64,000 nucleotides of DNA, taken from Punctularia strigosozonata HHB-11173 SS5. Lineage: Eukaryota > Basidiomycota > Agaricomycetes > Corticiales > Punctulariaceae. The notes under the pieces were generated by a model. That model made no database searches and had not been told where the DNA came from. It was given only the letters and a program-made list of their open reading frames with translations. Position 1 is the stretch's first letter. The number at the start of each line of letters is the position of its first letter. Where the stretch lies: NCBI RefSeq assembly GCF_000264995.1, contig NW_006767440.1:738787-802786 (forward strand). Direction: 5' to 3'. This document shows positions 1,940 to 62,500 of the stretch, piece by piece. A program made the translations under genes and the position numbers.

Positions 1940-2185
1940 ATAGCGTAGACTAGCCCCCAATCAACGAATAATAACCTGTCTGTCGCACGCACCGTTACTG
2001 GAGGATGGGACACACCGACCAGACCAGACAGCGCGGAACGTAATAGGGTGCGAGCGACCCAAGCTAGGTTCGGCCGGCCAAAAGCGGGCCAAACCATAGA
2101 CGAGCGAACGCCGCGAGGCGGGCAGACCGCCTGCCGTCGAACCTGAATAAATTCAGCTACAAACAACACACACACACCACCAACA

Positions 2186-5100
2186 ATGAGAGAGAACGAC
2201 AAACAGCAACCTGTATTGAGCGTTGACCGTTGCCCTAACGAGGGAGACGGCCCCGGGACGAGAGCGCGGTCCGCTGTGCATGGGACGGAGATGCACAGTT
2301 TAAACAGAGCGAATCCCCCGCCCTGCGGTGGGACTTCAACGGTTCGAACACCACAGACCCATGAGCGAGAACCTAGGGGAGCCCTCCGCCTCCCAGATCA
2401 ACCACAGGAGGCGAGCGACTACCCGACGAACAACACCGCGGAAGCGCCGCAACCAACCCCCCGGACACGAGAAGAAGCCGAGAGAGCCAGGGGTAGTGCC
2501 ACGCACGACGAGAGCGACGACAGCTCCGAAGACGACGAAGGGGCGCAACGACCATGGGACTTCGAACTGGACGAAGACATGATGTGGGAGCCCGAAAACG
2601 CCCCGCGCCCGGGAGCCAAGCCGGGCAAGCCTAAAGGGATGAAGAACACTAAGGCGTCAATCAAAATTGCAAGCCTCAACATGAGAGGGAGAGGGGACAT
2701 GACCCACCTCGAACAGAACAAACCACGTAACAAGTGGTTCCACATAAACCAACTGGTGCGGGATAGCAGGATAGGCATCCTCCTGCTCCAGGAAACTCAC
2801 CTGACGGCGGAACTGAAAAACCAGGTCGAATCAGTCTTCAGTAAGAGACTACGCGTCCTCAACTCAGAGGACGAAGAGGCACCAACCGCCGCGAGAGGCC
2901 TCGCCTTCGTCCTCAACAGGGAAATCACGAACGCGGAAGATGCGACCATCGTAAACGTGATCCCGGGACGTGCCGTCATGCTGAGAATACCATGGCACTC
3001 GGACCAAGAGCTTACCATCCTGGGGGTATACGCACCGAACGAGGCCAAAGAGAACTCCGAATTCTGGAGAAACTTGAAACGAGTATGGAGGACGGAGCGG
3101 CTCCCTAAACCCGATATGATGATGGGCGACTTCAATCTAGTAGAAGATAAGCTGGACCGCCTTCCGATGCATAACGACAACGGCGAAGCCGTGGAGGCCT
3201 TCCGCACCCTCAAGGCGAAAATGGGCATGCACGACGGATGGAGAATGGACCATGAGGACTATCTTCAGTACAGCTACACGCAGAACGCGACCGGCTCCCA
3301 CTCACGAATAGACCGCATATACGCCGCCGAGCATACGCTCCGCAATTGCAACGTCTGGTACATAGAACCCCCCGGGGCAGTCCAAACGGACCACCGAATG
3401 GTATCCGTCCAGTTAACGGACGCGAGCAAACCGTTCATAGGGAAGGGAAGATGGGCTATGCCCGCTGAAATGCTAAAACACAAGGCAGTTAGGGAGAGCA
3501 TCGAAACAATGACACGAGAACTGGAAGCGAACGTACAACTCGCCTGCAAACTGCCCCATCGCTCCCCGACATGGAACCCACAGACCCTCCTTGCAGACTT
3601 CAAGAAAGAGCTGGAGAGCGACGTACGAGACATCCAAAGGAAACGAATGCCGAAGATCGATAGGAAGATCGCCGGCCTAAACCTCCGCCTAAGCCAGACC
3701 GTCAATAACCGTGAGATTGACGAAAATGAACGCTCCATACAAGGAGCGATAATAAACGAAAAGATAGGAGAGCTTACCGCCCTGAAGCACACCCAGACAC
3801 GAACGAACTCGGCGGCACACGACCAGCTCAAGGGAGAGGTCATATCGAAGTACTGGTCCGCGATCAACGGCGATAGGAGACCAAGAGATACGTTGGCGAG
3901 AGTCCGAAACCCGAAGAGAGGCGGCCCGAACGAGCCAGAGTTCCTGACGAGCTCGGTAAGAATCGCCGAAGCGGCCCGGGACTACCACGAAGGACTACAG
4001 AACCTAGGCAGGAGACCAGATAATGAGACAAACGAAGCCAGGGTGAGAGTGCGGAATAGCACGAAAATACGCCTCAGCGAAGAGCAAAAGAATCACATGG
4101 CGCAGGGGGTCACAAGGGACCAGGTAATACAAGCGATCAAGGGTGCCCCTAACGGGAAGGCCCCCGGGATGGACGGATTCCCGTCAGAGATGTGGAAATA
4201 CCTGCACGAACAATACGAAAAAACCGAGAATGATGACAGGCCGACGTGCGACATCGCCGAGATATTCACCAAAGTATTCAACGACATAGAGAAGAACGGG
4301 ATATGCTCTGGAACCGACTTTTCGTTAGGATGGCTCTGCCCGATCTATAAGAAAAATGACAGGCAGGACATTAGCAATTACCGCCCGATTACTGTCCTGA
4401 ACGCAGACTACAAGATATTTACCAAAGCGTTAACCCTACGACTGTCCAAAGTTGCCGAAAAGGTGGTCCATCCGGATCAAGCCGGATTCATCCCCGGAAG
4501 ATCGATATTTGACCAGGTTAAGCTCGCGAAATTGACAACGCACTATGCAGACCAAACTGACTTCCGGGGAGCCCTGGTCTCCCTGGATCAAGAAAAAGCG
4601 TACGATAAAATCGAACACGCGTACCTTTGGGACATACTAGAGAAAATGGGATTCCCCAAGTCGTTCATCGACACCATAAAGCACCTATACGACGGGGCAG
4701 AGACCCTAGTGATCATAAACGGAGTCCTGAGCACCAGGTACGGTGTATTTCGAGGAGTGAGGCAAGGGGACCCCCTCTCATGCCTCCTCTTCAACCTAGC
4801 AATCGAGCCGCTCGCAGATATGATCCGGAGGTCAACGCTAAGGGGGATGAGCATCCCCGGAATACTGGAACGCACTATCGTGTCCCTATTCGCAGACGAC
4901 ACATCAGTCATCCTACACCACCTTGACAAATTCGAAGACCTCACCGCGATACTAGACGAGTGGTGCGCCGCATCAGGCGCAAAATTCAACGTGCTGAAAA
5001 CCGCGGTGATACCACTAGGCCCGGAGCAATACAGGGCGGAAGTAGTAGCGACGCGCAGGCTAGCCGCCGGCAACAACTGCATCCCGGACGGCATAAAGAT

Positions 5101-7483
5101 CGCGAGCGACGGCGAGGCAATACGTTTCCTGGGGGCCTGGATCGGAAACGGAGCCGACGACGCTACCCCGTGGGGACCAACCCTAGAAAAGATCGACGCG
5201 GCGCTAGGCAGATGGGAGAGGAGTCATCCAACACTGGAAGGAAGGCGCCTAATAGTCCAAATGGTGGTAGGAGGAATGAGCCAATACCTAACTAAAGTCC
5301 AGGGAATGCCGGTAGAAATCGAAAAGACACTGACGAAAAAGATACAGACCTTCGTCTGGAACTCACCCAAAACCCCACCAATCAACAAAGACACGATGGC
5401 TAGGCCCATCTTAGAGGGAGGAAAGAAGATCCTGAGCCTGAAGGAAAGGAACGAAGCGATCCAGCTAACGTGGCTGCAATCGTACCTAGACATCGGACAG
5501 ACGCGCCCAAAGTGGGCATACGTGGCAGACGAAATAATGAGAAGGAACGTCCCGAAATCCCTGAGTAAGTGGGACGAGGATGCCCTGATAAACTGTTTCC
5601 AACAGGACTGGAAACCAAAGACGAAAGGAGGCAACCTACCGAAAGAGCTGCGGGACCTAGTCGTAACCGCTGTCAAGCACGATCTAAAGTTCGAGGCGAT
5701 AGAAATCAGCACTAATGTTAAAGCCGAGCTCCCGCTGTGGCTCCACATCGGAGGGGAGTCCGCCGCAAAACGCCTACAAAACACGCCGAGAGCGAAATGC
5801 CTGAGACGAAACCATGACCTGCTCACCGTGGGCGACTCCGCATACTATACACACTTCTGGCCAAACAACCATAAAGCTCGAACAGACTGCCTATGCGGTG
5901 CATGCATGAGGGCAAAAGCAAGAGGATGTACGAACCCCGAGGCATGCCGCAAAGCCTGCGAGAGAGTATACAACGAACTGGGAGAGAGATGGAAACCCTC
6001 TGGCCCCCAGTACATAAGGAAGGAATTCGACAGTAACGTCACCTGCGCGGGGATACCTGACGAAGAAAGAGGACAATTGAGACCCTTCGACTCCGATCAC
6101 ATAGTGAGGCAGACGAGGGACTGCTTCCGGATATTCGCAGGGAACCTCACCCCAAGAAGGGCCCCACCGAGACCGCGAACTAGTCCTGGAGACACCTCGG
6201 CGATCTCAGTGGCAGTAGCTGGGGCCAGATGGTCCAAGGAAGGCGAAGACGCCAGGCACGCAGGGGGTATCTGGGCTGGAGAAGGCAGCCAATACAACCA
6301 AGGTTTCCGCACACCAGGCGGGGACTCGACGACATACACGCAGGGGATATACGCAGCGATAGCAAAGGCCGCGAGCATCATCCCCGCCTCCAAACCGCTC
6401 ATACTTCGCGTTCCGAGCGAGGCCGTAATCCAAGAGCTCACGACGAAAAGAGCGAGAAACGAAGATAACGACTGGGTCGATAAAACCGAATCCGACGCGC
6501 AGAGAACTGCGATCGCGAATATAAGGGCCAGGGAGGCCTGGACGGCGTTCATAATGACGCCTCTGAAGGGAAAGAACGCATCAGTGAAGAAGGCGAGAGA
6601 TGCCGCAAAAGCAGCGAATGAAGCGGGACCAATCGAGGAACTGACCGCGCCTCCTCCAGAGTTTACAATACACGGAGCAAGACTCTGTGCCTCCACCCAG
6701 AGCTCCCTATACCGGAGCCTCATCAAGAAAAGGAAGCCCACCACGAGAAGACACACCGCAATGAACCTGGACATAATACGGTGGGCGGCGGCCGGACTAG
6801 GGCGGAAGACCCCCCCCTCAGACGCCCAGATATGGAAAGCAACCCGCAGCCCGGTCATGTTGAGGGCCGAACGCGCGTTCCTGTACAAAACCGTGCACGA
6901 GGCCCACCGGGTGGGCGGTTTCTGGGAGAAAATACAGAACTACGAAAACAGAGCAGTCTGCGGCGTATGCGACTGCACAGAATCCATAGAGCACATACTC
7001 ACCGACTGCGAAGGTAGCGGGTGCTACATAATTTGGCGACTAGCGGAGTCCCTGTGGAGACGCAAGACGTCCAAGCCATGGCCAGGCAACGCGTACGGCA
7101 CCATAATGGCGTCGTGCATGGCGAGTTTTGAGGACGACAAGGATGGGAGCGTTAGCAGATTCTACAAGATCCTGATCGCGACGTCGGCTTACATGATATG
7201 GGTCATCAGGTGCGAACGGCGGATCCAACGCGGGGAACACCCAGAGAAAAGGCACACGCGAACGGAGATACACAATAGGTGGGTAGCCAAAATTAACCAA
7301 CGGCTGAACCTAGATAGGGCGATGGCGAACGGATCACGTTACGGAACGAAGGCCCTAGCAAGGAAAACGGTCCTGAAGACCTGGTTGGGCGCACTAGATG
7401 ACGAAGAAAGCCTCCCCGAGGACTGGATCTGGAAGAGCGCGGTTTTAGTGAGTATACGACCAATACGCGATCGGGGTGGATAA
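2186..7483 (+). CDS. LINE ORF: APE-type endonuclease, reverse transcriptase, RNase H-like region
   Basis: This is one uninterrupted frame of 1765 residues. An acidic disordered leader precedes an APE-type endonuclease at about 159-415, with the motifs SLNMRG, QETHL, GVYAPN, GDFN, DRIY and TDHRM. Reverse transcriptase follows at about 690-960; the palm is marked by FRGVRQGDP and the catalytic FADD near residue 901. A Cys-rich segment (six Cys, about 1235-1262) and a C-terminal CxxC...H...C zinc motif (about 1590-1610) resemble those of other LINE polyproteins. Between them, about 1338-1480, sits a stretch shaped like RNase H1 but lacking three of the four catalytic acids. The protein nicks target DNA and copies the element RNA in place. 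Confidence 0.93.
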   Translation: MRENDKQQPVLSVDRCPNEGDGPGTRARSAVHGTEMHSLNRANPPPCGGTSTVRTPQTHEREPRGALRLPDQPQEASDYPTNNTAEAPQPTPRTREEAERARGSATHDESDDSSEDDEGAQRPWDFELDEDMMWEPENAPRPGAKPGKPKGMKNTKASIKIASLNMRGRGDMTHLEQNKPRNKWFHINQLVRDSRIGILLLQETHLTAELKNQVESVFSKRLRVLNSEDEEAPTAARGLAFVLNREITNAEDATIVNVIPGRAVMLRIPWHSDQELTILGVYAPNEAKENSEFWRNLKRVWRTERLPKPDMMMGDFNLVEDKLDRLPMHNDNGEAVEAFRTLKAKMGMHDGWRMDHEDYLQYSYTQNATGSHSRIDRIYAAEHTLRNCNVWYIEPPGAVQTDHRMVSVQLTDASKPFIGKGRWAMPAEMLKHKAVRESIETMTRELEANVQLACKLPHRSPTWNPQTLLADFKKELESDVRDIQRKRMPKIDRKIAGLNLRLSQTVNNREIDENERSIQGAIINEKIGELTALKHTQTRTNSAAHDQLKGEVISKYWSAINGDRRPRDTLARVRNPKRGGPNEPEFLTSSVRIAEAARDYHEGLQNLGRRPDNETNEARVRVRNSTKIRLSEEQKNHMAQGVTRDQVIQAIKGAPNGKAPGMDGFPSEMWKYLHEQYEKTENDDRPTCDIAEIFTKVFNDIEKNGICSGTDFSLGWLCPIYKKNDRQDISNYRPITVLNADYKIFTKALTLRLSKVAEKVVHPDQAGFIPGRSIFDQVKLAKLTTHYADQTDFRGALVSLDQEKAYDKIEHAYLWDILEKMGFPKSFIDTIKHLYDGAETLVIINGVLSTRYGVFRGVRQGDPLSCLLFNLAIEPLADMIRRSTLRGMSIPGILERTIVSLFADDTSVILHHLDKFEDLTAILDEWCAASGAKFNVLKTAVIPLGPEQYRAEVVATRRLAAGNNCIPDGIKIASDGEAIRFLGAWIGNGADDATPWGPTLEKIDAALGRWERSHPTLEGRRLIVQMVVGGMSQYLTKVQGMPVEIEKTLTKKIQTFVWNSPKTPPINKDTMARPILEGGKKILSLKERNEAIQLTWLQSYLDIGQTRPKWAYVADEIMRRNVPKSLSKWDEDALINCFQQDWKPKTKGGNLPKELRDLVVTAVKHDLKFEAIEISTNVKAELPLWLHIGGESAAKRLQNTPRAKCLRRNHDLLTVGDSAYYTHFWPNNHKARTDCLCGACMRAKARGCTNPEACRKACERVYNELGERWKPSGPQYIRKEFDSNVTCAGIPDEERGQLRPFDSDHIVRQTRDCFRIFAGNLTPRRAPPRPRTSPGDTSAISVAVAGARWSKEGEDARHAGGIWAGEGSQYNQGFRTPGGDSTTYTQGIYAAIAKAASIIPASKPLILRVPSEAVIQELTTKRARNEDNDWVDKTESDAQRTAIANIRAREAWTAFIMTPLKGKNASVKKARDAAKAANEAGPIEELTAPPPEFTIHGARLCASTQSSLYRSLIKKRKPTTRRHTAMNLDIIRWAAAGLGRKTPPSDAQIWKATRSPVMLRAERAFLYKTVHEAHRVGGFWEKIQNYENRAVCGVCDCTESIEHILTDCEGSGCYIIWRLAESLWRRKTSKPWPGNAYGTIMASCMASFEDDKDGSVSRFYKILIATSAYMIWVIRCERRIQRGEHPEKRHTRTEIHNRWVAKINQRLNLDRAMANGSRYGTKALARKTVLKTWLGALDDEESLPEDWIWKSAVLVSIRPIRDRGG

Positions 7484-7657: not shown

Positions 7658-7693
<36 letters not shown>
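7484..7693 (+). other. LINE 3' UTR and A35 tail
   Basis: About 175 bases of non-coding 3' end are followed by an uninterrupted run of 35 A's at 7659-7693. The insertion boundary is the G at 7694. The tail lies only about 230 bases upstream of the start codon of the next gene, so the element sits in or just before that gene's promoter or 5' UTR. Confidence 0.85.
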
Positions 7694-10353: not shown

Positions 10354-12108
10354 ATGGACAGGCGAGTAGCGTCTGTTCAATAGCGCAATCCGGCTTCTTC
10401 AACTTTACAATCCTTTAGCCAACTCTCTTCCGCAGACGCCCCTTGGCTGAGCTCTGCGGCGGACGAGATACGTCGCGAAATTGATAGCAAGATACACGGC
10501 CTGCTTGAAGAGGTTCGGGCCTTACGCGAGAGGCGCAACCATTTGGCGCCTGTCTACAAGCTTCCCGTTGAACTGTTAACCTCCGTCTTCTGTCATAGCA
10601 TGCCTGCTTCAAAGGACGAACCCGTTCAATTCACTTCAAGCCACGCATTCATGAACGTATGTCGCCGTTGGCGTGAAGTCGGGCTCGGAACTGTCGCTGT
10701 TTGGGCGGAACTGCCCGGCTATGTCCTAGCCTCCCCGAAGATGACTCAGACATTCCTATCGAGGTCGAAAGGCGCGCCGTTGACGTTGAATGTGAGCGTT
10801 GGTTCTAAAACGACAACAGCCTCCCCCGCTGCCGTCGACACCGTCCTCTCTCACATGGATCGCACAGTAAAACTTCGGCTTCGTTGTACAAGCTGGTCCC
10901 TCCCAAAGCTTACCCAACTCCTACAGCCAGCTCCGCTCCTGTCCTCGTGCTCCATCATTAGCATATCAAGGACCCCCATGTGTCTACCAAACGATTTCTT
11001 GGCTCTATCTGCCCCACAGCTCCGCCATCTACACTTATATCGCACAAAACTCCACTGGACTGCGATGTCAAGGTCGCTACTGCAAGGACTGACAACACTC
11101 GAAATGGACAGTGTGTATGGGGTTTTCACCGTGGCAGAACTCATCGACGGATTGAGATTTATGCCATTGCTTCACGAATTGCACCTGCGTTGAGTCTCGC
11201 CATCGGATTCGAAGAAAAATACTACACGTTCTGGTCCCGTCATGCTGCCTCGACTGAAAGTTTTTTATCTTCAGGATTCGTTGGAACGCTGGGACAAAAG
11301 AGCCAGCGAATTGATCAACATGATCAGAGTACCTCCTGAGGCTTCGGTGACTATCCGGCTTTCCAGCCTTGACCGAGGTCCATGGGATTGGCCTGGATTA
11401 TTGGCGTTTTTGCAGGATCATTGCACACTATGCGTTACCGGGCCCCGTATTCGCCGCTTGGAATGCTACGAAACCTCGGACACTTTTGCCTTCCATGCAT
11501 ACGCAACACATGTGTTACATCATCATGACCCTCCATTGCTTCGTGTGATCCTCAAAGGAACCCTCTTCGACACCATGAACCGCGATATTGACTTCGTGGG
11601 GATGCTACAGCTCGATCATCTCGAGATACTCGGCCTGCTCCTCCTTTCGCATTCTGATCGGGACTCGATCGTCCGCATTCTCAAGCACGGAGGGAACGCG
11701 TCCGAGCTTTGGCTCCGAGATCACCATTCGTGCAAGACGGTGCTTCCTCTCCTGATCGAATCGTCGCCAAGGCAGGGAAAGAGCGATCAACAGCCCACGG
11801 AGCATCTTCTGCTTCCGGAGCTCCGAAGGATTAACGCGAATCTGGAAGATCGACGACCGTCTCAGGATCTGCTCAGTCGATTCCGAAGCCTCTTGAACCG
11901 AAGATCCAAGCTCACGAACGGGCCATTGTCCCTCGCGCTCGTCAACAGCCGCATTGACAAGCCCGAAGACCTTGAGAAACTTCGAAAGGCTGCCGGTCAA
12001 ACGGAGCTGGTGCAGGTACTGGACGACCGAGGTGCGTCTGGAGAAGACTATTTCATCTTGTCGAATGTGGACAAGGAGCCGGAGATCATTGACTCGCCGC
12101 ATTCGTGA
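10354..12108 (+). pseudogene. F-box pseudogene, sister of the gene at 7922
   Basis: It is colinear with the intact gene over its whole length in one reading frame, from the start-codon region (MDRRV against MDRQV) through the F-box (VYKLPVELLTSVF) to the conserved end. Two in-frame stops interrupt it: TAG at 10381-10383, ten codons after the start, and TGA at 11191-11193. Around the second stop the copy is also shorter than its sister. Neither stop sits in a plausible intron. Translation could begin at ATG 10543 and give a 216-residue F-box fragment, so a truncated protein is possible. Otherwise this is a recent host-gene relic in tandem with its source. Confidence 0.8.
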
Positions 12109-48902: not shown

Positions 48903-51527
48903 ATGGCTGATAATCCGACATCTCGCAACACGGCTTTGCAGGAGGAGATCGACACGTTAGATCGGGTGAGTAGCTATCTTCAGAAACACAACACCGTATG
49001 AGGTGACATACGGCTTGCGATTCAGGCTCTCGGCTCGATCCCGCGAGATGACGATACCTTTCGGACGTCCCTGCGCACGCTCAGCAAGCTATGCGGGCAA
49101 CACAAACTCTTACCCACGAGCTACACGTTATCAGGACTCGTGAAAGTCAACGAACATCCGCATAGCGCTGGTGGATTCGCAGATGTATTCCGGGGAACTC
49201 ACGACGGTACACCTGTTGCCATGAAAGTGATTCGACTGCACGCGGGAGATCGTGAAACGTATATGAAGGTGCGATCTTTACCTTCACCACAGACACTGAG
49301 AACCTTCATTCACGTCGTCGTCCTGGTATTCAGGTGTTCTGCAAAGAGGCGATCGTCTGGAAACGACTGGATCATCCGAACGTCGTTCCCTTCCTCGGTG
49401 TTGCGCCAGGGTATCAAGCATGCATCGTCTCCGAATGGATGGACCACGGCGATGTCATGTCATATCTCGAACAGCACCCGCGTGCCGATCGCGTTGAACT
49501 GGTGAGCATCATGCGTTGCGACGCACTGGGCCAACCTTACATCGCCACGCTCAGATCACGGGCATCGCTTCTGGCTTGGAGTACATGCACGCGAGCGGTA
49601 TCGTGCATGGGGATATCAAAGGCGTGAGTTGATAGCCACCTCTACCGTCGATAAATGAACATTGGAACCCAGCGCAACGTCCTGGTGGACAGATCCGGGC
49701 ATGCGCGTCTTGGTGATTTTGGTCTTTCCACGACGGTTCTTGGTACCACCTCTTTAGCAGCGACAGCCGGATCGTCCGCAAACTGGGGCTCCTTCCGTTA
49801 CATGGCTCCCGAGTTGAACGATGGCATGGCCAAGGATAAGATCTTGACTTCGAAATCCGACGTATACGCGTTTGGAATGACCACCTGGGAGGTGAGGCGC
49901 AGTCCGACGTGGCCGATTCACGTCGACTGACGCTGGCCGCAGATCTTCGATGGGAGACAACCATTCCACGATATCACAAGCATATTCGTGGTCCTTCGTG
50001 AAGTTCTTGACGGTAAACGACCATCGCGCCCTCCGCACGCAAAAGAGCTAGGTCTGGACGATTTCGTCTGGAGGATTGCCGTTAGCTCGTGCTGGGCAGC
50101 AGACCCATCTGAGCGACCGCAAATGTCGGAAGTACTCGGGTGCCTCGGGTATCACAAAGCTGCACGAGGGGTGATCGCGAAGCTGCTGCATGAAGGTCTC
50201 TCGGATGCCGATCGGCAAAAGCTCGATCAGCTGCTGTTTGCAGGTTAGTCGTGACGCTATGGCTTCCTACGAGCTCTGCACTGAACCGGCATAGAAATAG
50301 GCGGACGTGCTATGCGCAATGTCGCTAATGCAAGAAAGCTTTTTCAGTATCTCGATATCATGCTTGAAGAACTAACGGACTCGAACCTGCGGGAGACGCA
50401 TACACCCGATATAATCTTGGTCCTCGGTCTATATTCGTCGCTGCTGCCGGGCAAGAAGCTATATCCTACGCGCATCATGGAGAAACTGCTATCGCATGTT
50501 GACCACAGGCAATTTGGGACCCGCCAAGATACGGGGTGGATTATGCAGACAAGTGGTACGCGGTAAATTTGATGCGTTGTTCATATTCTGGCTTCCGACG
50601 ATCGTTCCAGCAGAGCCAGTGCAGCAACGCACCATGCAAGGCCATACCCACGACGTGTTATCTGTTTCCTTCTCTCCGGATGGCTCGCAAATCGCCTCGG
50701 GATCCGGGGACAACACCATCCGAATTTGGAACGCGCACACTGGAAAGGAAATCCGCGAGCCTTTACGGGGGCACACGTACTGGGTCCGATCGGTGTCATT
50801 TTCCCCCGATGGAAAGCGCCTTGCCTCGGCCTCAGGTGACGGCACCGTGCGACTGTGGGACGTGGAGACAGGGCAGCGGATCGGGCAGCCGCTCCAAGGG
50901 CATACGCGCTCGGTTTTCTGTGTCGCATTCTCACCCGACGGCAACCGCATCGTCTCGGGCTCACACGACGCAACGCTCCGACTCTGGGACGCGCACACGG
51001 GACAGGCCATCGGCGAGCCTTTATGGGGCCACTCTAACTATGTTTCGAGCGTCGCCTTTTCACCGGATGGGAAGCACATCGCCTCTGGGTCCGGAGACCA
51101 CACAATTCGACTCTGGGACGCAGAGACAGGCCAGCCAGTCGGGGACCCGCTGCAAGGCCACGATTCCTCCGTTTGGTCAGTCGCATATTCCCCCGATGGC
51201 GCGCGCATCGTCTCGGGCTCCGACGACATGACGATCCGGATCTGGGACGCTCAGACAAGACAGACGGTGCTGGGGCCATTGCAAGGGCACGAAAACGAGG
51301 TCACCTCCGTGGCATTCTCGCCGGATGGCAAGTACGTCGTCTCCGGCTCCTACGACCGCAGGATCCGGATATGGGACGCGCAGACGGGACAGACCGTGGC
51401 GGGGCCTTGGGAAGCTCACGGTGGCGAGTATGGGGTTCGCTCCGTCGCGTTCTCGCCCGATGGCAAGCACCTCGTCTCAGGGGGTAGTGACAATCTGGTG
51501 AAGATATGGGATGGAGAGGTCGATTAG
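48903..51527 (+). CDS. Protein kinase - WD40 fusion protein, copy A
   Basis: Eight exons (48903-48965, 49026-49268, 49334-49501, 49555-49623, 49673-49891, 49943-50243, 50295-50555, 50611-51527) give 746 residues. A short N-terminal region (1-65) precedes a kinase with Gly loop AGGFADVF (69-76), Lys88, catalytic loop HGDIKGRN (176-183), DFG (196-198) and APE (226-228), so it should be active; it is of the tyrosine-kinase-like group of fungi. A linker (about 340-440) conserved only with copy B follows. Seven WD40 repeats of 42-43 residues (452-746) are very alike and would close one propeller. The kinase and propeller are joined by a 55-nt intron in phase 1. Role inferred: recognition by the propeller, signalling by the kinase. 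Confidence 0.88.
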
Positions 51528-52035
51528 GCCAGCGTGGGGTGTCGGGATGGGATCGTTGTTGAGGTGCGTATCCGCTTTCGTCGTGCATGGGCCTCCCTGA
51601 CGAGTCAAAATGGTAGTGGACGCCGTCGATTTGCGTCCACCGGCTAGAAGCGCGTGCAGCGACGATCACCCGCGAAGCATCATTCATACGGTTGCGATAC
51701 TATCTCGGAGATTGTCAACGGCTTGAAGGGCGTCCCAGGGATCGTTCGCGCGACTCAGTGGCCGCCGTGTCTCTTAACCTAGATCCTCCAAGATGCGACG
51801 CGTACCGTACGCCGTGTGTATTTGCATCGGTTCCCCGTTCTCGTCGACGTAGTGCACTTATGTATCACACGCCCTGAATAGAGCGGTTCACCGGAGGCGA
51901 TACTGTAACTTTCATACAACACCGAAATACAACGGCGGGCGAATAATTAGGGTGCGCAGGGAACAAAATATCTCCACGTCGTCGCACATTTGGAGTTTTC
52001 TACCATCCATCGAGAGAAAAGGCGTTCGACGGAGG
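51528..52035 (+). repeat. 3' flank duplicated after both kinase-WD40 genes (copy A)
   Basis: From the stop codon onward about 500 bases match the flank after copy B (58636-59140), with several blocks of 15 or more identical bases, for example gatttgcgtccaccggctag and catcggttccccgttctcg. No coding frame runs through it. Similarity fades after the shared agagaaaaggcgt block. Confidence 0.8.
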
Positions 52036-54276
52036 GGAGTGAGGTACTGAGTGCAGTGTCAGTAACGCTAGCGCATTTCGGATGCGACATTACCTTGCAA
52101 TTGTCATCCTCCATTCCGTCACCATCTATCGATCGAAGTTCACCCAGCGCGCAGAGCCCGGCGGACGCGTCCTGGGCAGATGTTCATCGTCTATCCCTCC
52201 TCCCAGCCACCCTCTTCAACGATCAACGTCCAGCGTGGTTCGTGCATGGCTTGGGGACGACAAGCGGCCGAAAGGGTGCCATCGGTCGACGGTCCGGGGC
52301 GGCGAGCGAAGGACGTATGCAGATCGATACCGCTCAGCCAGAACGTCGGAAGAGGCGGAAGGCGCCGCGTACTGAGCCTGCTCCCGCAGCCCTGAATGTC
52401 CTATTCCCCAGTGACCGGAAGAACGTCGAAGAAGAGGTCGTGGAACGCGTGTTGATGGGCGAATGTCTTTGAACGGTCATGGCCGGTTGGGATCGACGGA
52501 CGGCATGGACCCCCGTCATGCTCGATCGCGCGGGAGGATGTATCGATGATGGGAAAAGAGCTGGCATGGTCATCAGCATCGTAGAGGATCGGTACGGGCA
52601 TCAGTCCATCCATTACAAGAAGGGCTTAGCCCCTCGCGCGTCCTTGGGACTGCGATTGAGACTTGCGTGGGCGCATATGGTCGATGATGTAGGTCTTTGT
52701 TCGTCCAATCGCCGGCGCAAGAGAACATCCGAAGGTGCAGAGGGAAGGTCGATGGGCTAGGAGACCTCTCAAAGCTCAGCAAAGCAAGCGGGCCACGGCA
52801 GTCGCGTATTCGCGGACGTGTCTCCGGTTCGCGAAGCCTGAAGTAGCAGAGCTGGAAGCAAGAGTTGAGCGTCGGCGCAGACCTCGGACACGCAGAAAGG
52901 GCGAGAAGTTACCATAGCCTGGATTGCATGAGCAATTGGCGTTACCGAACGCTAGCTGCGTCGTCGTCGAGATACGCCGGACGTCGGAGGCTAACACGGA
53001 GATGGGCCAGATGGCGCTCAAGCGGTCGTAAACGCGAACGAAATCACTTCAGAGATTTCCTGGCGATATTGTGATCACGGCGAGTGGTCGTCAAGTCAAT
53101 GCGGCGGCCGGTACATTCGCGCGACGACGCGGTTGCCTTGGGTGCCGTGTCTGCAGAACAACAGGCATCAGCATCTGGAGGATGGGAAAAGGGGTAATAG
53201 CGCACGGGTAATGCCCTTCAAACACAAGCCGCCCGACGTGACATCTCTCGAAAGCTCGAAGCAATGAATGCCCGAAACGCGGCCTCGAGCTTCGATAGTT
53301 CACGCGATGGTGGCAAGGGGAGCGCGGAGGATCCGACGATGTGGACATCCTTCAACATGGAAGTGTCGAGCCCAGAATCGAACTGTGTTACGTCAAGCGC
53401 AGCTGCATGCTGAGGTTAGATGTCTGTACCAGCACCGTGCATACAACAATGACTCACAATCAGCGATTTTGTAGAGGTGTCGTTGTCCGCCCGGTCTATT
53501 ATGTATCCGCCCTGCCTTTCGCTGTCTTTGTCGAGGAACGCCGCGCATTGGATCGCTGGCACAGATGTGATATGGCGTCCAAAGCATCGAGATTGGTTCG
53601 TCACTCACTCCCGGCGTATGTACGAACAGAAGGTGATGAGACGCACGCAGGCCGCCGATGTAGCGTCCGCCGATGCGGAGACGTCAAGGCGGGAGCTCCG
53701 GTAGATGTCGACCACGATATCCAGGCCGTCATCAGACCCATATACCATACCTGTGGAAAAAAGAGGGAGATCAGAACGCGCCGATGACGATGCGGCGAGG
53801 GGGCGCGACATGCATGGGACATACCGAATGAGATCGCCTCGTAGTTCGACGTGATAGAACTTGTGTGCCGTTGGATCGTGCGCCTTTGGGTTTGCAGGTA
53901 ACAAAGGCGATGCGGTGCCGCCGCCGGATATTTGACAGATTTTGATGCAAGTACGTCGCTTGAGGCTGGCGCATGGGTTGCAAGGAGTCGGAGAGGCGTA
54001 TTGCGGGCAGAGCGGCGAAGGCCATGAGCGGGCGCCTATACGTGAGGGCGGAAAATCGCTCGCGCTTCACCGGGAGTGCGAGAGCGAAGTCCGCGAGACG
54101 TGACGATGACGTCGGGATCGTCGGTCGCGTTTGCCCACCAACCTCTCGCGCCGACTTCTCTTGTGCCACCCTCCCTTCGAAAGTCGCAGCATGATGGATA
54201 TCTTTTGTTGTCCACTAACACTCACCTCACACTCATCTTCACTCTCCCGGACGCGTTCTACTCGATAATCGACCTT
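52036..54276. other. Region between kinase-WD40 copy A and the SH3 relic; no recognised gene
   Basis: About 2.2 kb. Plus-strand frames to 52.5 kb are Arg/Ser-rich and unconvincing. On the minus strand near 53.2-53.93 kb a few open stretches could be exons of a small spliced gene, for example HKFYHVELRGDLIR followed by a GT, and a last piece ending SSFREMSRRAACV. I could not match a family or confirm the joins. Any coding call here would be weak. Confidence 0.35.
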
Positions 54277-55146
54277 ATGGCTGCGACACCAGCGGAACAA
54301 GCCCTCCTCGCGCACGTCGTAGCGCAGATGGAGTCGAATATCGATTTTCTCGTGCAACAGAACTATATTACTGCCATAGATGCGTCGGGCGATTCGCGCC
54401 AAGCTCCCGAAGACAAATGGGGCTATTGCGAGGGCGTTAAGCAGCGGGCCGGTCCCCATCGCGTCCACGACGTCTACGCGCTCGGTACCGCAGACGCCCA
54501 CGGCGACCGTCGTAAAGGCGAAAGCAACCTGGGGATACAACGAGGACGGTTCTGTGAGTACAGTGATCCTTTCCAGCTCTCGCAATAGATTGACCATATA
54601 AATAAGAACCCAAAGATCTGTCCTTCCTCGCGGGGGAGATCATCAAAATCGTCGCCGAGACGAACGAGGACTGGTGGACGGGCAAGCACCGCGGCAAGAC
54701 CGGCCTCTTCCCGTCCAACTACGTCGTGAAGATCGCCGAGCCTGCGCTCCCCGCCCGCAACCTGCCGCCCGTGCGCGCCTACTCGGGACCCGCGCCTCCC
54801 ATCGTGCTCCACCCGCCACCTGCCCCACCTTACGAATCCGGGCAGGTTGGCGCGCCGAGAGAGAACGCGCCTTAAAAGCTGTTTGGGGCCGCGCTTCATG
54901 GCTCAGACCTCCCGCCCAGCGTCGGATCTCCGCAGACCAACTCGGTAGGGCTGCAGGAGGCTCCAGGCCAAGACAAGAAGAAGAGCAAGTACGGTGCACT
55001 CGGGAACACGGTCAGTCCCTCCGCATTGTGCACATTTTAAGGGACTCAACTAGCCTTGTGGATTTGTACTCGCAGATGGCTCATTCGGCCGCAGGCGGTG
55101 CCGGGTTCGCGGTCGGAAGCGGACTCGTACGCGCCATCTTCTGGCT
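54277..55146 (+). pseudogene. LSB1/PIN3-type SH3 protein gene, decayed
   Basis: Starting at ATG 54277 the protein follows the Las17-binding Lsb1/Pin3 family: an N-terminal helix region, then an SH3 domain ([19 protein letters not shown], then [20 protein letters not shown] after an intron at 54549-54606), a Pro-rich linker with PPAPPYES, and a Gly/Ala tail GGAGFAVGSGLVRAIF. Three defects are visible. One extra base in the tcgggcgatt stretch near 54388-54391 shifts the frame before AIRAKLP. A TAA follows ENAP near 54872. The expected stop after RAIF reads TGG, so the frame runs on to about 55480. The family works in actin patch regulation. An assembly error could explain one defect but hardly all three. 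Confidence 0.65.
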
Positions 55147-55992
55147 GGCTTTCCGTCTCAGCTCAGAGTCAGCTTCCAAACTCAGGGTATCGCTTCTAAT
55201 CCTGGACCAGACCACCTCTGTCAGCTCAGTTCAGCTCTCTTACGACTCTCAGCCTCGACAACTCTCGGCTCTTCCGACACGATCTACCGACGTTTCTGGG
55301 CGCGCATCCCGCATGACGCCACAAACACAGGGTCTACCAGCGAGCTCGTTGTCAGCGGGGCTAGCATCTGGAAGCTTGAATATGAGTCCTACGCCGTCTT
55401 ACGCTTCATGGCGGCCCGAGAGGTTGCTGGTGCAGAATCTGCTGGGGGGAGCGCGGAGTCCCGGAAATCTCGGCCGATGATCGTACCTGGCGCCTGCTCG
55501 GGCTGACCGCCTGAGTTTCTGGCGCTCACCAAATGCGTGCCCGCGAGTCGGACTAACTTGTTGACAGGTGCATGGGAGTCCGGACGATCCTGCCATATCG
55601 ACTGTGCGAGGCTAATTCCTTATTAGCGGCACAACGCAGGTCTCAAGTCAACTCTGGCAAGCCTCGCGACTTAGCCTAGCTGCTCACGACGAGAGTAATG
55701 TATATACGAGCTTCATGCTTACAGCCGAAAACGGTTAATGCAAGATAGGAGCCATGCTTCTGCGCATGCTCTCCCGTATAAATAACTAGGTCCAATGGCA
55801 ATGCACGCACAACAGCCTACCGCACTGCCGCCATGCATTGTACAAAGGTGATACACGTGCGAACGGCCATCCTTGCCGCTTTAACCCAGACGGGCCTCTC
55901 GGCGCTAATCGCTATCGAGGACATCAACGAGGCGCATCCGTGGCCGACCCTTTGCCCCAACGCTTCCTCACCTACATCCAGAGCGACGTTAC
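55147..55992. other. Spacer upstream of kinase-WD40 copy B
   Basis: About 850 bases. No independent gene seen; the run-on frame of the SH3 relic covers its first part. Little similarity to the upstream region of copy A was noticed. Confidence 0.5.
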
Positions 55993-58635
55993 ATGGAGGA
56001 CAGTTCAGCGCCTCATACCGTGGACTTGCAGGAGAAGATAGACTTGTTAGACAACGTGAGTGGTTGATCGCATGGACCGCAAAGGAGCAAAACGAGGAAC
56101 TCGACGTGCTCTCTAGGGCCTCGATCGGTTACGTCAAACGGGCGATACGTTTCGAAGGTCCCTGCGCACGCTGAGAGAACTGTGCGGGGAAAGCGGGCTC
56201 GTACCCACCAGGTACAGGTTGTCGGGACTGGCCAGGATTGGGAACGATCCACCTTGCGCTGGCGGATTCGCCGACGTATACCGGGGGACCTACAACGGCA
56301 CGATTGTGGCTCTGAAGTTCATGCGACTGCACGTCAGGGATGGGAAATCGTTCATGAAGGTGCGTGACCTACGATGCCAGACCAAAACGTTCGCGTGGTC
56401 AACTCGCGAAAATGATTAGGTGTTTTGCAGGGAGGCTGTCGTCTGGAAACGACTGAATCACCCACATATCGTCCCCTTCATCGGCATCGATCCGTCGTGC
56501 CAAGCGTGTATCGTGTCGGAATGGATGGAGCATGGCGATGTCATGTCGTATCTTGAAAGCCACCCGCGTGCGAATCGCGTTCAACTGGTGAGCGTCGCGA
56601 TTTGATGTGCACCGTGTCAACCTCACGGGGCCATGTCAGATCACGCACGTTGCTCGTGGCTTGGAGTACATGCATGCCAGCGGTCTCGTCCACGGGGATC
56701 TCAAAAGCGTGAGTGGGCATCCTCCTGAACGGTCAATCCATATTCAGTCATCGGGACGCAGCGCAATGTCCTCGTCGACAGCCTTGGGCATGCGCGTCTC
56801 AGTGACTTTGGTCTCGCCACGACGGTACTTGGTACCGCCACTCTGGCACCGACTGCTGGGTCGTCAGCAAATTGGGGCTCGTTCCGTTACATGGCCCCCG
56901 AGTTGTCCGACATTACGGCGAAGGATAAGACGTTGACGTGGGAGTCTGACGTGTATGCGTTAGGTATGACCGCATGGGAGGTGAGCACAGTTCAACCATC
57001 GGTCCGACATAGTTGAACCATGTTACCAAATACTCTGAACAGATCTTTGCTGAGCGGCACCCGTTCTACGATATCCCACACGAACTTGTGGTTCTTCTCG
57101 AAGTTCGCGACGGCAAACGACCCGAGCGTCCTCTTCATGCACAGGCGTCAGGCCTGGACGATTTCATCTGGAGCAATGTCATCAGCTCCTGCTGGGTAGC
57201 ACGTCCGTCTGGGCGACCTCGGATCTTGGAAGTACTAAATCGGCTTCAATGGTATGAAACTGCTCGACGGTTGATTGCGAAGCTGCTGGACGAAGGCCTT
57301 GCGGAGGTGGATCGTCAAGTGCTCGACGAGATGCTGTCTACAGGTTGGCCACGTTGTCATGTTCCCACAAGCTCTGTACTCAACTCGCACAGAGATGGGC
57401 AGGGCTGCTATATTCAGTAATGCTGGTTCAAGCACGCTTTCTGAGTCTCTTGAAACCATGCTAGGCGAATCAACAGAACCGAACTTGCGCGAGACGCGTG
57501 CGATTGATATGATATTGGTCCTCGGCACGATGTCTTCGTTCCTGCCAGACATGAACTTGAAGCAATATCCCAGACGCGTGATGGACAAACTTGGGCCTCA
57601 CGTTGACAAGAGGCGACCGGGGATCCAGCGGGCGATGGCAAGGATGACGCAGAAATTAATTAGGCGTGGTGGTACGCGGTATTTGGATGCGTTGTGCGCG
57701 TTGTATTGACTCCATCATCAGGGCCAGCGCTGCAGCGTACGATGCAAGGTCATTCCAACTATGTAACCTCTGTTTCCTTCTCTCCGGATGGCTTGCAAAT
57801 CGCCTCGGGCTCCGGGGACAACACTATCCGAATTTGGGACGCGCACACTGGAAAGGAAATCCGCGAGCCTTTACGGGGACACACGTTCAACGTCAACTCG
57901 GTGTCATTTTCCCCCGATGGAAAGTGTCTTGCCTCGGCCTCATATGACAAGACCGTGCGACTGTGGGACGTGGAGACAGGGCAGCGGATCGGGCAGCCGC
58001 TCGAAGGGCATGTAGGCTGGGTCATGTGTGTCGCATTCTCACCCGACGGCAACCGCATCGTCTCGGGCTCACTCGACCACACGCTCCAACTCTGGGCCGC
58101 GCAGACGGGACAGGCCATCGGCGAGCCTTTACGGGGTCACTCTCACAGGATTTGGAGCGTCGCTTTTTCACCGGATGGAAAGCACATCGCCTCTGGATCC
58201 GCCGACAACACGATTCGACTCTGGGACGCAGAGACATGCCAGCCAGTCGGGGACCCGCTGCGAGGCCACGATTCCTCCGTGTGGTCAGTCGCATATTCCC
58301 CCGATGGCGCGAGCATCGTCTCGGGCTCCGACGACATGACGATCCGGATCTGGGACGCTCAGACAAGACAGACGGTGCTGGGGTCATTGCAAGGGCACGA
58401 AAAGGCGGTCACCTCCGTGGCATTCTCACCGGATGGCCAGTACATCGTCTCCGGCTCCTGGGACGGCAGGATCCGGATATGGGACGCGCAGACGGGACAG
58501 ACTGTGGCGGGGCCTTGGCAAGCTCACGGTGGCGAGTATGGGGTTTTCTCCGTCGCGTTCTCGCCCGATGGCAAGCACCTCGTCTCGGGTGGTCATGACA
58601 AGTTGGTGAAAATATGGGATGGAGAGGTCGATTAG
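55993..58635 (+). CDS. Protein kinase - WD40 fusion protein, copy B
   Basis: Eight exons (55993-56055, 56117-56359, 56420-56587, 56640-56708, 56762-56980, 57043-57343, 57393-57671, 57722-58635) give 751 residues. Exons 1-6 have exactly the lengths of copy A. The kinase keeps CAGGFADVY, an invariant Lys in VALKF, HGDLKSRN, DFG and APE. The linker shares LRET, ILVLG, SS-LP and HVD with copy A. Seven WD40 repeats (457-751) differ from copy A mainly at residues after GH and around the xDx turn. The propeller begins after a 50-nt phase-1 intron at the same place as in copy A. Whether the two act together or are alternative receptors is unknown. Confidence 0.88.
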
Positions 58636-59140
58636 GCCAGCGTGGGGTGTCGGGATGGGATCGTTTTCGAGGTGCGTATCCGCGTTCGTCTTGCATGGAC
58701 CTCCCTGACGAGTCAATGGTAGTTGTTGGTGTCGATTTGCGTCCACCGGCTAGAAGCGCATGAAGTGGAGATCACCCACGCAACATCATCCAGGCAGTCA
58801 TGATATTACCTTGGAAATTGTCGACGGCTTGAAAGGCGTTCCAGGGGCCGTTCGCGCGACTCAGTCGACGCCGTGTCATATCCAGACATTCCAAGATGCG
58901 ACACGTACCGTACATGCCGTGTATATTTGCATCGGTTCCCCGTTCTCGTCGACGCAGTGCCTTTATGTATCATGCGCCACGGATAGAGTGGTCGATTGGG
59001 AGGCGACATCGTAACATTCATCCAACAACGAAGTACAGGAGTAGGCGAACGATTAGGGTGTTCAAGGAAAAAGAATGACCACGTCGTCGCACATCCAAGT
59101 TCCTTCTATCCATAGAGAAAAGGCGTCCGAGCGCAGGCGA
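58636..59140 (+). repeat. 3' flank duplicated after both kinase-WD40 genes (copy B)
   Basis: This is the partner of 51528-52035. The shared flank shows that the duplication, or later conversion, covered the 3' UTR as well as the coding part. Confidence 0.8.
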
Positions 59141-59547: not shown

Positions 59548-62500
59548 TTACACTGTGAAGATGGCCTCCTTTGCGCCCTTCTCCACCTCCACCGCCTTAC
59601 CTTGAACCTTCCCGCCAGCAGTGACACCCGTGATCCGCAAGCGTTCATCGAAAAGTGAAATGCTCGCAAGCCCAACCGCGCCGTCGACCACGCTCACCCT
59701 GATCTCCGCCCCTTTCCTCTCCGCACGCACTGTGCCCGCAACCTTGCCCGTCTCGCCCGTCGGAATCACGGCCTCGACCTTGGCCCCTTCTTCGAGCTCA
59801 TACAACCGGACCTCCAGCCCCTCCGACAACTTGTAGTCCGGCCGACCAGTGTGCTCCGGGCCCAGGCAGAGGATCGTGTTGGGGCGAACCCAGACGGGGA
59901 TGTCGTCCAGCGGCACCACCTCCTTGACCCACGTCGGGCCGGTGACGACGCGTTCGGGATGGAAGAAGGACGTCCATCGGCCAGCGGGGAGGTAATACTC
60001 GGATTCTTCGCCCTCCGGGACAAAGACGGGCGCTACTAGGAGCGACGAACCGAGCATGTACTGTTTGTCGAGGTAGTGCGTCGTGCGGTCGGAGAAGAAC
60101 TCGATGAACATCGCGCGTTGAACGGGGGCGCCGGTCTCGTGCGCTTTCAGAGCCTGGGTATGATGGGCAACATCGGATTAGCAGGCACTCTCTACGCGGA
60201 GCGACGACACGCACGAGGCTGTATATGTAGGGCATTAAGCGGTGTTTGACTTCCAAGTATTTCGCCATGTTGTCGGCGGCATCTTCGCCGTACTCCCATG
60301 GTACACGGTAACTGTGCGAGCCATGCAGCCGCGAGTGCGAAGAGAAAATGCCATAAGCAACCCAGCGGTGGTACACCTCGGGCGGAGGACGTCCCTAAGT
60401 ATCGAATCAGTGCTCTTCGTTCGCACATGACAGGTGAAGAGTACGGACCTCGAATCCACCGATGTCGTGTGACGTGAATGCATAACCGGACGTTGTCAAG
60501 CTCAGCCCACCGCGCAGTGTCTCAGCCATGGCTTCCAACGTGGATTCGCAGTCGCCTCCCCAATGCACGGGGAACCGTTGACCACCCGCGTGACCCGATC
60601 GAGCGAAGACGACGGCCTCGCCCGTTCCGAAGCGCTTCTTCAGAATGCCGAAGACTAGATCATTGTAAAGTGTTGCGTATACATTGTGCATGCGGTACGG
60701 GTCGGAACCATCGTGGTAGATAACATTCGCATGCGGAATACGCTCGCCGAAGTCCGTCTGCATAAGGTCACCCAACGTGAGTGATTTCGCAGGCAACGAT
60801 AATGGCCAACGTAATCAGTTAGCGCACCTTGAATGTATCGACACCTAGGTCGATCAACTTCTCTAGCTTGCCAGCATACCATTTGCACGCCTCCGGGTTG
60901 GTGAAGTCAACCACAGCGAGACCCGGTTGCCACAGGTCCCATTGCCACGGTGTTCCGTCAGTGCGCTTGATGAAGTAACCGCCCTTTACACCCTCCTCGA
61001 AGATAGGCGAAAGCTGCGAGATGTAAGAGTTGACTGCGAGATGAACGTATAGCGTCAGTAGACTTATAAGTCGAGAACAGCAGAACGCACTCCAGACGCA
61101 GATCTTGACGCCATACTTCTGCTTGATAGACGTGAGATACGCTTTGGGGTCTGGGAACATGTCAGGGTCGAATGTGAAGTCACACCTGCCCATCATGATC
61201 ATGAGTGAATGCATGATGTTCGGGAAGTTACAATTATTACCACTGGTAACCCTTCATCCAGAAGCAGTCTAAGTGGAAAACACCGACCGGACAGTTGCGC
61301 TCTTGCATGCCTTGCAGGAAGCTCGATACAGTCTGGACGTCATGTGATGAGCAGCTAACGCAAGAAGGACACGAAAGACAACCTACCTTCTCGTCGTAAT
61401 TAGTCAAGAAAGAGGTCGATAGCCATAGACCAAACGTCCACGTCGGCAAAACACTAAATGCTACGAATCAGTTCTCTGAATTCCTATCCAAGCTTCGTCA
61501 CTCACGCTGGTCGTCCAGTCATGCGAGTGTATTTCTCCAAGATCTGGCAGGTTGGTAAGTATCCCGCGAGAACGCGTCACGGTGGCTTGAACCGACCTCC
61601 AAGGGAGTTTCGCCATGAATGATAAAGTACTCCAGTGCTTCTCCCGTGACGCTCACACCGACGCGGCTGACCTTCTCGGAACCGACCTCTACCTCTACTT
61701 CCCCAGGATGGTTAATAAATACCCCTGGTGACGAAGTGTTAAGACGTGGCTGTATGCTGACAGTATTCAACGCACCATAACCCCTGTTGGTGATGTAGAA
61801 AGGAACGTTTTTGTAGGCCTGTTCAGAGGACGTTCCACCGTCCTGGTTCCAAATGCTGACGGTTTGGCCTTCGCGTCTTTAGTACGCCATGTACGCGAAT
61901 GATACGTTGTGAGACAACGCACCGTTCTTGATAAAGGGTCCGAATTGTTCGCCCATGCCATAGATCAGCTCTCCGGGGCTGAGGTTCAACTCAGAATGGA
62001 CGTAGCGAACGGTCTCTGGTGGAGGTACAGGGTTGGGGTTGGAGCTAACGTCCGTCGCCAAGCAGCTCGTGTTCGCCGCGCTGTTTTGCGTCCACTTATA
62101 AGGAACGTCGTAAATGCCCTGGTGCTTGTACCCGGCGGAGGTGAGCGTCCGTTTGGACGACTTGAAGGTGATGGTGTACGGGTTTTCGGTGATTTCCGCG
62201 GTCAAGCCGGAAGTGGAGACGGTCCAGGATCCTTGCCCCTGGCTCAGGACAGTCTTGCCTACGATGGCCTGATCGTCTGGGAATAGATGGATCTCGGGCT
62301 TCTGGTCAACGTGCTTGAAGTGGACAATCTTGACGCCGATTACACCCTCAGTAGGGGAGTGGACACGGATGCTGAGGACGGGACCTGAACGACGACGAGA
62401 GTCAAACTGAGCTTAGAGGCAAATAATAATAAGCACGAACCTCCCAAAGTATCGCCCCGATGTCTTATAGGCTTCGTTGAAACTTGAAGATTGTAACCAT

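What the first reader, a model, noticed from the sequence alone, without database searches (positions are those of the whole stretch)
48903..58635. Tandem kinase-WD40 genes that look like receptors with a kinase in place of a NACHT domain
Two genes 4.5 kb apart each encode one protein with an apparently active kinase, a private linker and a seven-repeat WD40 propeller made of near-identical repeats. Seen in sequence: all kinase motifs and seven repeats in each. Known: highly similar WD40 repeats are the ligand-sensing part of fungal NACHT-WD40 incompatibility receptors such as the het-d/het-e family. Inference: the same kind of sensor is here coupled directly to a kinase, so the pair may be a self/non-self or pathogen recognition system with a different output.
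Basis: partly seen in the sequence, partly recalled or inferred. Interest (0 to 1): 0.85.

Follow-up and report, generated by a model that had tools for sequence, protein, structure and literature searches.

The report
Tandem fungal kinase-WD40 recognition genes
Two neighbouring genes, apparently from a fungus, each join a protein kinase directly to a ring-shaped binding domain; the two rings are alike except at the few surface positions that fungal self/non-self receptors diversify, so they may be recognition receptors that signal through a kinase.

Summary
Each gene reads as one 8-exon protein (746 and 751 aa): a TKL-like kinase with its motifs, a linker of about 120 aa without a Pfam match, and a seven-bladed WD40 propeller. 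All seven intron positions and phases agree, including the in-frame linker-propeller join. The repeats are not "near-identical": blades average 53-56% identity, below the 85% of HET-D/E-type receptors, with no sign of blade shuffling.

The stronger evidence was not in the finding. Kinase and linker are old duplicates (dS 0.82, 0.69), but the WD40 exon (dS 0.13) and about 500 bases of 3' flank are far more alike, as if exchanged between copies. Inside that tract, amino-acid differences crowd onto the four repeat codons under diversifying selection in Podospora: 18 of 26 codons differ against 21 of 261 elsewhere, and nonsynonymous divergence there is five times the tract's silent divergence. Old differences spared by exchange would look the same.

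Best reading: NOD-less receptor kinases whose propellers diversify like HNWD sensors. The non-self or pathogen role is inferred; no alleles, transcripts or fungal relatives could be searched. A new variant of a known kind.

The parts
48903..51527 (+). Gene g1, kinase-linker-WD40, 746 aa; exons 48903-48965, 49026-49268, 49334-49501, 49555-49623, 49673-49891, 49943-50243, 50295-50555, 50611-51527
   Evidence: spliced reading frame without stops, GT..AG introns of 49-65 nt
49167..50140 (+). g1 kinase domain (aa 69-320, converted to window coordinates by hand), TKL-like, over exons 2-6
   Evidence: PF07714 1.5e-46; the 60 PDB sequence matches shown of 2430 include ABL1, RIPK2 and CTR1
50141..50639 (+). 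g1 linker, about 120 aa, with introns 6 and 7; no Pfam match
   Evidence: 0 Pfam families at E<=5 for the 128-aa linker piece; exon 7 modelled as helices but at pLDDT 52, not reliable
50640..51527 (+). g1 seven WD40 blades, six of 43 aa plus a shorter seventh with a 2-aa insert, then stop
   Evidence: model mean pLDDT 95.4
50663..52029 (+). Low-divergence tract in g1 (WD40 exon from blade 1 strand a, stop, about 500 nt of 3' flank); 15% differences against 41% upstream and 58% downstream at third-codon and noncoding positions
   Evidence: change-point fit; identity by feature
55993..58635 (+). Gene g2, kinase-linker-WD40, 751 aa; exons 55993-56055, 56117-56359, 56420-56587, 56640-56708, 56762-56980, 57043-57343, 57393-57671, 57722-58635
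   Evidence: spliced reading frame, same seven intron positions and phases as g1
56258..57246 (+). g2 kinase domain (aa 69-322, converted by hand)
   Evidence: PF07714 4e-41
57247..57747 (+). g2 linker, with introns 6 and 7
57748..58635 (+). g2 seven WD40 blades and stop
57771..59130 (+). Low-divergence tract in g2, counterpart of 50663-52029

Best explanation
The two genes are tandem copies of a NOD-less receptor kinase. The WD40 propeller's top face binds a protein ligand whose identity is unknown; binding, or losing it, switches or clusters the TKL-like kinase through the linker, and phosphorylation is the output. Shown: the architecture, both intact reading frames, the homogenised propeller exon, and divergence concentrated on the codons of the d-a and b-c turns, well above the silent rate of the tract. 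Inferred: that the differences are kept or driven by selection for different ligand specificities, that the ligand is a non-self or pathogen-linked protein, that the kinase is active, and that its output is defence or cell death.
For: Kinase, linker and WD40 in one frame in both copies, with identical intron positions and phases. Propeller model at pLDDT 95.4, with PkwA's WD40 as best fold match. dS is 0.82 (kinase), 0.69 (linker) and 0.133 (WD40). The low-divergence tract of about 1.37 kb runs into noncoding 3' flank, so codon bias alone cannot explain it. Within the tract 18 of 26 HV4 codons differ in amino acid against 21 of 261 others (p=3e-12). HV4 nonsynonymous divergence is 31.5/63.5 (0.50) against tract silent 20.3/212.3 (0.096), p=2e-11; at the other codons it is 0.038, as under purifying selection. 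Codons with 2 or 3 changed bases: 11 of 26 at HV4, 2 of 261 elsewhere. HV4 are the four codons reported under strong positive selection in P. anserina NWD repeats, on the propeller's top face (PMC1805685, passages). In all seven blades of the model these positions fall at the start of strand a and between strands b and c (read).
Against: Only two sequences: no alleles or orthologues. On HV4's own few silent sites the excess is not significant (binomial p=0.12; p=0.04 for the seven-position set). HV4 are the fastest positions between blades too (odds ratios 20.7 and 28.0, against 26.5 between the genes), so the enrichment alone is not diagnostic. HV4 nonsynonymous divergence equals old kinase silent divergence (0.50 and 0.50), so they may be old differences spared by exchange. 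Inside the tract five of seven blades carry HV4 differences; blade 5 has none, and those of blade 1 lie before the tract. Position 32 of the published seven shows none; position 43, outside the set, varies in 4 of 6. Seven blades and 53-56% internal identity are unlike HET-D/E. No known death-effector gene was recognised among the 26 selected reading frames scanned, which are a part of the window's frames.
Confidence: 0.5

Rival explanations
1. Ordinary duplicated signalling kinases. The WD40 is a substrate or scaffold docking domain; ectopic exchange homogenised the 3' half, and the top-face differences mark two copies that came to bind different partners. No immunity or incompatibility is involved.
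For: Silent differences lie nearer the HV4 codons (12 in 75.7 silent sites within 3 codons, 6 in 112.3 further off; binomial p=0.02, permutation p=0.0096; whole propeller, and the 3-codon limit was chosen after seeing the distances), as expected if old segments were spared by exchange. HV4 nonsynonymous divergence equals the old kinase silent level. Kinase and WD40 share single ORFs in three bacterial loci, and a WD40-kinase association is reported in eukaryotes too, less often (PMC5587647, passage).
Against: Exchange that spares the ligand-contact codons in five of seven blades still suggests selection for difference. Two or three bases changed in 11 of 26 HV4 codons against 2 of 261 others.
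Confidence: 0.33
2. The WD40 exon was acquired or replaced later in one or both genes from a third family member, so the low dS dates a recent capture and says nothing about ongoing exchange.
For: Sharp break at the start of the propeller (g1 50660-50663) while the upstream intron and linker stay at old divergence.
Against: The join, its intron position and its phase are the same in both genes, which two separate captures would not predict; intron 7 aligns at 64%.
Confidence: 0.12
3. The gene models are wrong and the kinase and WD40 parts are separate genes.
For: No transcripts; intron 7 uses a donor (GTACGC) unlike that of the other introns.
Against: Intron 7 has the same phase and donor in both copies and joins the frames without a stop in both.
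Confidence: 0.04

Closest known systems
HNWD/NWD receptors of Podospora anserina (HET-D, HET-E, HET-R): HET-NACHT-WD40
   Same: C-terminal WD40 sensor; exchange between family members; divergence concentrated on repeat codons 7, 9, 25 and 27 on the propeller's top face (PMC1805685, PMC12222747, PMC2873952; passages)
   Different: No HET, no NACHT; a TKL-like kinase instead; seven blades where functional alleles usually have 11 highly conserved repeats and those under ten are non-reactive (PMC12222747, passages); blades 53-56% alike instead of about 85%; each blade is closest to its positional counterpart, so no sign of shuffling
PkwA of Thermomonospora curvata and bacterial kinase-WD40 proteins
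   Same: Kinase and WD40 in one protein; best fold match of the propeller (5yzv, 46% identity); kinase and WD40 matches in one ORF in 3 of 14 fetched loci, L003, L004 and L012
   Different: Bacterial; kinases of those loci only 26-27% identical to g1; divergence at HV codons not tested there; that PkwA's kinase is N-terminal is recalled
Basidiomycete tyrosine-kinase-like (TKL, Pkinase_Tyr) family
   Same: Kinase type; TKL expansion reported in Laccaria bicolor (PMC2838846, passages); PF07714 and WD40 domains enriched in ectomycorrhizal fungi (PMC8955403, one passage)
   Different: No kinase-WD40 protein is described in the passages seen; that this kinase belongs to the basidiomycete family rests on recall
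Fungal NLRs with a kinase N-terminal domain, and effectors fused directly to repeats
   Same: A kinase is a listed NLR N-terminal domain (PMC4986451; PMC9815663); protease domains fused directly to WD40, TPR or ANK repeats are reported (PMC12881547)
   Different: The kinases listed there are N-terminal domains of proteins with a NOD; the repeat fusions in the passage seen are of proteases

Membership tests
Fungal NLR / NACHT-WD40 (HNWD) receptors | central NACHT or NB-ARC domain | tested here: not met
   the linker pieces (128 and 133 aa) matched 0 Pfam families at E<=5; only the best 25 of 62 and 66 families were shown, none of them NACHT or NB-ARC
Fungal NLR / NACHT-WD40 (HNWD) receptors | highly conserved repeats (about or over 85% internal identity) | tested here: not met
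   mean 0.56 and 0.53
Fungal NLR / NACHT-WD40 (HNWD) receptors | excess divergence at WD40 codons 7, 9, 25 and 27 | tested here: met
   between the two paralogues only: 18 of 26 against 21 of 261 codons; dN/dS on these codons' own silent sites 2.6, p=0.12; allelic variation not testable
Fungal NLR / NACHT-WD40 (HNWD) receptors | concerted evolution of the WD40 part | tested here: inconclusive
   the propeller exon is homogenised between genes, but there is no sign of shuffling between blades
Fungal NLR / NACHT-WD40 (HNWD) receptors | cell death on meeting a non-self ligand allele | not testable with these tools
   needs strains
TKL / PK_Tyr_Ser-Thr protein kinases | kinase domain with catalytic motifs | tested here: met
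   PF07714 1.5e-46 and 4e-41; motifs read
TKL / PK_Tyr_Ser-Thr protein kinases | kinase activity | not testable with these tools
   no assay
Seven-bladed WD40 propellers | seven repeats closing one ring | tested here: met
   seven PF00400 stretches; model pLDDT 95.4; 5yzv TM 0.92 over the query
Highly-repetitive WD40 proteins (Hu et al. 2017) | internal identity of at least 0.7 | tested here: not met
   0.56 and 0.53, the moderately repetitive class (cut-offs)

The most novel reading that the evidence does not exclude
A NOD-less class of fungal recognition receptor: an HNWD-like diversifying WD40 sensor gates a TKL/RIPK-like kinase directly. Diversity arises by copying whole propeller exons between tandem genes while the ligand-contact codons are spared or re-diversified, instead of by shuffling near-identical repeats.
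Probability: 0.4. Interest if true: 0.8.

Novelty: new variant of a known kind. Interest (0 to 1): 0.58.

Why it matters
The WD40-sensor receptors characterised in the papers seen here are ascomycete NLRs. A kinase-output receptor with the same specificity codons would show that the WD40 sensor is a portable module, independent of the NOD switch, and would give a directly testable candidate recognition gene. The tandem pair also makes a clean test of how sensor diversity is made, because the kinase half serves as the unexchanged control for the exchanged sensor half.

Tried and rejected
Searching the window's own genome: none is held, so genome-wide counts of the family, further copies and alleles could not be obtained. 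Within the window tblastn at E<=0.01 found no match outside the two genes and their edges. The species was not identified; 'fungus' or 'basidiomycete' rests on gene structure and recall.

Prokaryotic relatives (one scan of genome contigs): 62 stretches matched a pattern and 14 loci were confirmed, WD40 identity 31-57%. Three of the 14 also match the g1 kinase at E<=1e-3, inside the same single ORF. This shows that the architecture exists in bacteria but brings no close relative.

Linker fold from exon 7 alone: pLDDT 52, discarded.

Enrichment of differences at HV4 as sole proof of positive selection: rejected, because blades within one gene differ there just as strongly. I rely instead on the comparison with the tract's silent rate.

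Codon bias as the cause of low WD40 dS: GC3 is somewhat higher in WD40 (0.70-0.72 against 0.55-0.64), but noncoding 3' flank is also preserved at 76-90% for 500 nt, so rejected as the main cause.

Filing g1 under a named WD40 family: g1 passes the Pfam cut-off for the THOC3 propeller (PF25174, 329 bits against 305) and g2 does not (258 bits); I take these as generic propeller matches, since several other named propeller families pass too.

Not run: an ordinary (non-immune) WD40 paralogue pair as an external control for the HV4 test.

A claim that fungal kinase-WD40 receptors are undescribed rests only on searches of one open-access library, of which titles and abstract starts were seen, and only the first 10 of 23 and 12 of 26 papers. 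Subscription papers and preprints were not searched.
Full report
WHAT IS THERE. Two genes on the + strand, g1 48903-51527 and g2 55993-58635, each split into eight exons by GT..AG introns of 49-65 nt. The seven intron positions and phases are the same in both. The first script started g2 two bases too early; with the ATG at 55993 the frame is open. The proteins have 746 and 751 aa and no internal stop. Pfam finds one kinase (PF07714, 1.5e-46 and 4e-41) and seven WD40 stretches in each (best 25 of 62 and 66 families shown). By direct reading both kinases keep the lysine (VAMK/VALK), the alpha-C glutamate, HGDxKxRN, DFG and APE. The 60 PDB sequence matches shown of 2430 for g1 residues 1-449 are led by an EGFR kinase chain and include Eph, ABL1, RIPK2, CTR1 and FAK; 'TKL-like' is my classification. 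The linker between kinase and propeller, about 120 aa, matched no Pfam family at E<=5 in either gene.

THE JOIN. The linker-WD40 junction is an intron of 55 and 50 nt, phase 1, with the same GTACGC donor in both genes. That both copies keep the frame across it, although their linkers are only 45% identical, argues that kinase and WD40 are one protein. No transcript was available.

THE PROPELLER. The g1 WD40 exon, modelled from an alignment with its g2 counterpart, gives pLDDT 95.4 and pTM 0.92. The best PDB fold match is the WD40 domain of PkwA, itself a bacterial kinase-WD40 protein (5yzv, 46% identity, rmsd 1.2). By the published cut-offs this is a moderately repetitive propeller (PMC5587647, passages) and not the over-85% class (PMC4986451, passages). 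Each blade is closest to its positional counterpart in the other gene (0.77-0.95), so there is no sign of blade shuffling.

TWO HISTORIES IN ONE GENE. Between the genes dS is 0.98 (N-terminus), 0.82 (kinase), 0.69 (linker) and 0.13 (WD40). Differences at four-fold sites are 69 of 150 before the WD40 and 18 of 154 in it. Introns 1-7 are 49-69% identical, the WD40 exon 90%, and the first 500 nt after the stop 76-90%; the next four 100-nt stretches align at 33-61%, three of them with many gaps. Upstream, the 300 nt before the ATG align at 61% and the 300 before those at 39% (random unrelated 300-mers of the window align at 47 +/- 4%). A change-point fit on third positions and noncoding sites puts the preserved tract at 50663-52029 in g1 and 57771-59130 in g2, with 15% differences inside, 41% upstream and 58% downstream. 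Preservation of noncoding flank makes exchange (gene conversion or unequal crossing-over) the natural reading. GC3 differs only mildly (0.70-0.72 against 0.55-0.64).

THE SPECIFICITY CODONS. In Podospora NWD repeats, codons 7, 9, 25 and 27 are under strong positive selection and lie on the propeller's top face, each pair bracketing a conserved residue (PMC1805685, passages). A later paper uses positions 10, 11, 12, 14, 30, 32 and 39 in another numbering (PMC12222747, passages). Counting from the GH of each blade I map these to 5, 7, 23, 25 (HV4) and 3, 4, 5, 7, 23, 25, 32 (HV7); the conserved V6 and D24 fix the register, which is my own mapping. In all seven blades of the g1 model, positions 5 and 7 bracket the first residue of strand a, and 23 and 25 lie between strands b and c (read). 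Over all blades, amino-acid differences between the genes are 20 of 28 at HV4 and 23 of 267 elsewhere (p=3e-13; HV7: 27 of 49 and 16 of 246). Inside the tract only: 18 of 26 and 21 of 261; HV4 nonsynonymous divergence 0.50 against tract silent divergence 0.096 (p=2e-11) and 0.038 nonsynonymous elsewhere. Codons with two or three changed bases are 11 of 26 at HV4 and 2 of 261 elsewhere.

WHAT THAT DOES AND DOES NOT SHOW. Against HV4's own silent sites, which are few, the excess is weak (dN/dS 2.6, p=0.12; HV7 2.9, p=0.04). Blades within a gene differ at HV4 just as strongly (odds ratios 20.7 and 28.0, against 26.5 between genes), so enrichment alone is not diagnostic. HV4 nonsynonymous divergence equals old kinase silent divergence, and silent differences lie nearer the HV codons (12 in 75.7 silent sites within three codons, 6 in 112.3 beyond; binomial p=0.02, permutation p=0.0096; this count covers the whole propeller, including the first bases of blade 1 before the tract, and the three-codon limit was chosen after seeing the distances). 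So either the specificity patches are old and were spared when the surrounding exon was copied, or they were diversified after copying. Both suggest that differences at the ligand face are useful; sparing by chance would have to occur in the five blades (2, 3, 4, 6, 7) that differ at HV4 inside the tract. Blade 5 shows no HV4 difference and those of blade 1 lie before the tract; position 32 shows none; position 43, outside the published sets, varies in 4 of 6.

SURROUNDINGS. Between the genes lies an SH3-domain gene near 54277-54875 (SH3_1 7.2e-12). Downstream on the - strand is a GH31 glycosidase. No NLR, HET, gasdermin or HeLo match was found in the 26 sequences scanned (10, 10, 6). These are selected frames, not the whole window, and short exons can be missed.

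MECHANISM. I propose that the propeller's top face binds a protein and the linker passes the binding state to the kinase, whose phosphorylation is the output; tandem copies with different faces widen the set of ligands watched. The predicted propeller and the unusual divergence of its turn positions are shown. Ligand, switch, kinase activity and outcome are inferred.

KNOWN OR NEW. It may work like an HNWD sensor but is not a member: it has no NACHT, no HET and no highly conserved repeats. Kinases are listed among N-terminal domains of fungal NLRs (PMC4986451, passages; PMC9815663, passages), and effectors fused directly to repeats are reported for proteases (PMC12881547, passages). Kinase-WD40 proteins are known in bacteria, and the association is said to occur in eukaryotes 'much less frequently' (PMC5587647, passages; the PkwA structure paper PMC6113231, passages). 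Of the 14 loci fetched here, 3 have both domains in one ORF. In a multicellular bacterium, hypermutated putative antigen sensors are tied to conflict systems, and a figure legend on the diversified proteins lists a protein kinase domain (PMC10907252, passages). My ten library searches listed no paper on a fungal kinase-WD40 receptor by title or abstract start; two of the lists were cut. So: new variant of a known kind.

Noticed in passing
window 2147-7483 (+), A35 run at 7659-7693: Long 1778-codon frame with reverse transcriptase (RVT_1 8.5e-35) and endonuclease (Exo_endo_phos 5.1e-06) matches, followed by a run of 35 A: a LINE-type retroelement, open over its length.
   Followed up: partly
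window about 54277-54875 (+): SH3-domain gene between the two kinase-WD40 genes (SH3_1 7.2e-12 for a peptide joined over one inferred intron); exon structure not worked out; it resembles Lsb1/Pin3-like proteins by recall.
   Followed up: partly
window 59548-62412 (-): Glycoside hydrolase family 31 gene in several exons immediately downstream of g2.
   Followed up: partly
window 10384-11193 (+): 269-codon frame with a weak F-box-like match (E 0.003, below Pfam's cut-off).
   Followed up: no
blade position 43 in both genes: The residue just before the next blade's GH differs between the genes in 4 of 6 blades, although it is in neither published hypervariable set.
   Followed up: no
L003 3099-6635, L004 2673-5993, L012 2889-6506: Bacterial (two Planctomycetota-type and one Pedosphaera MAG) single ORFs of 1106-1205 aa with kinase and WD40 matches, best WD40 identity to the query 52% in L003.
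   Followed up: partly
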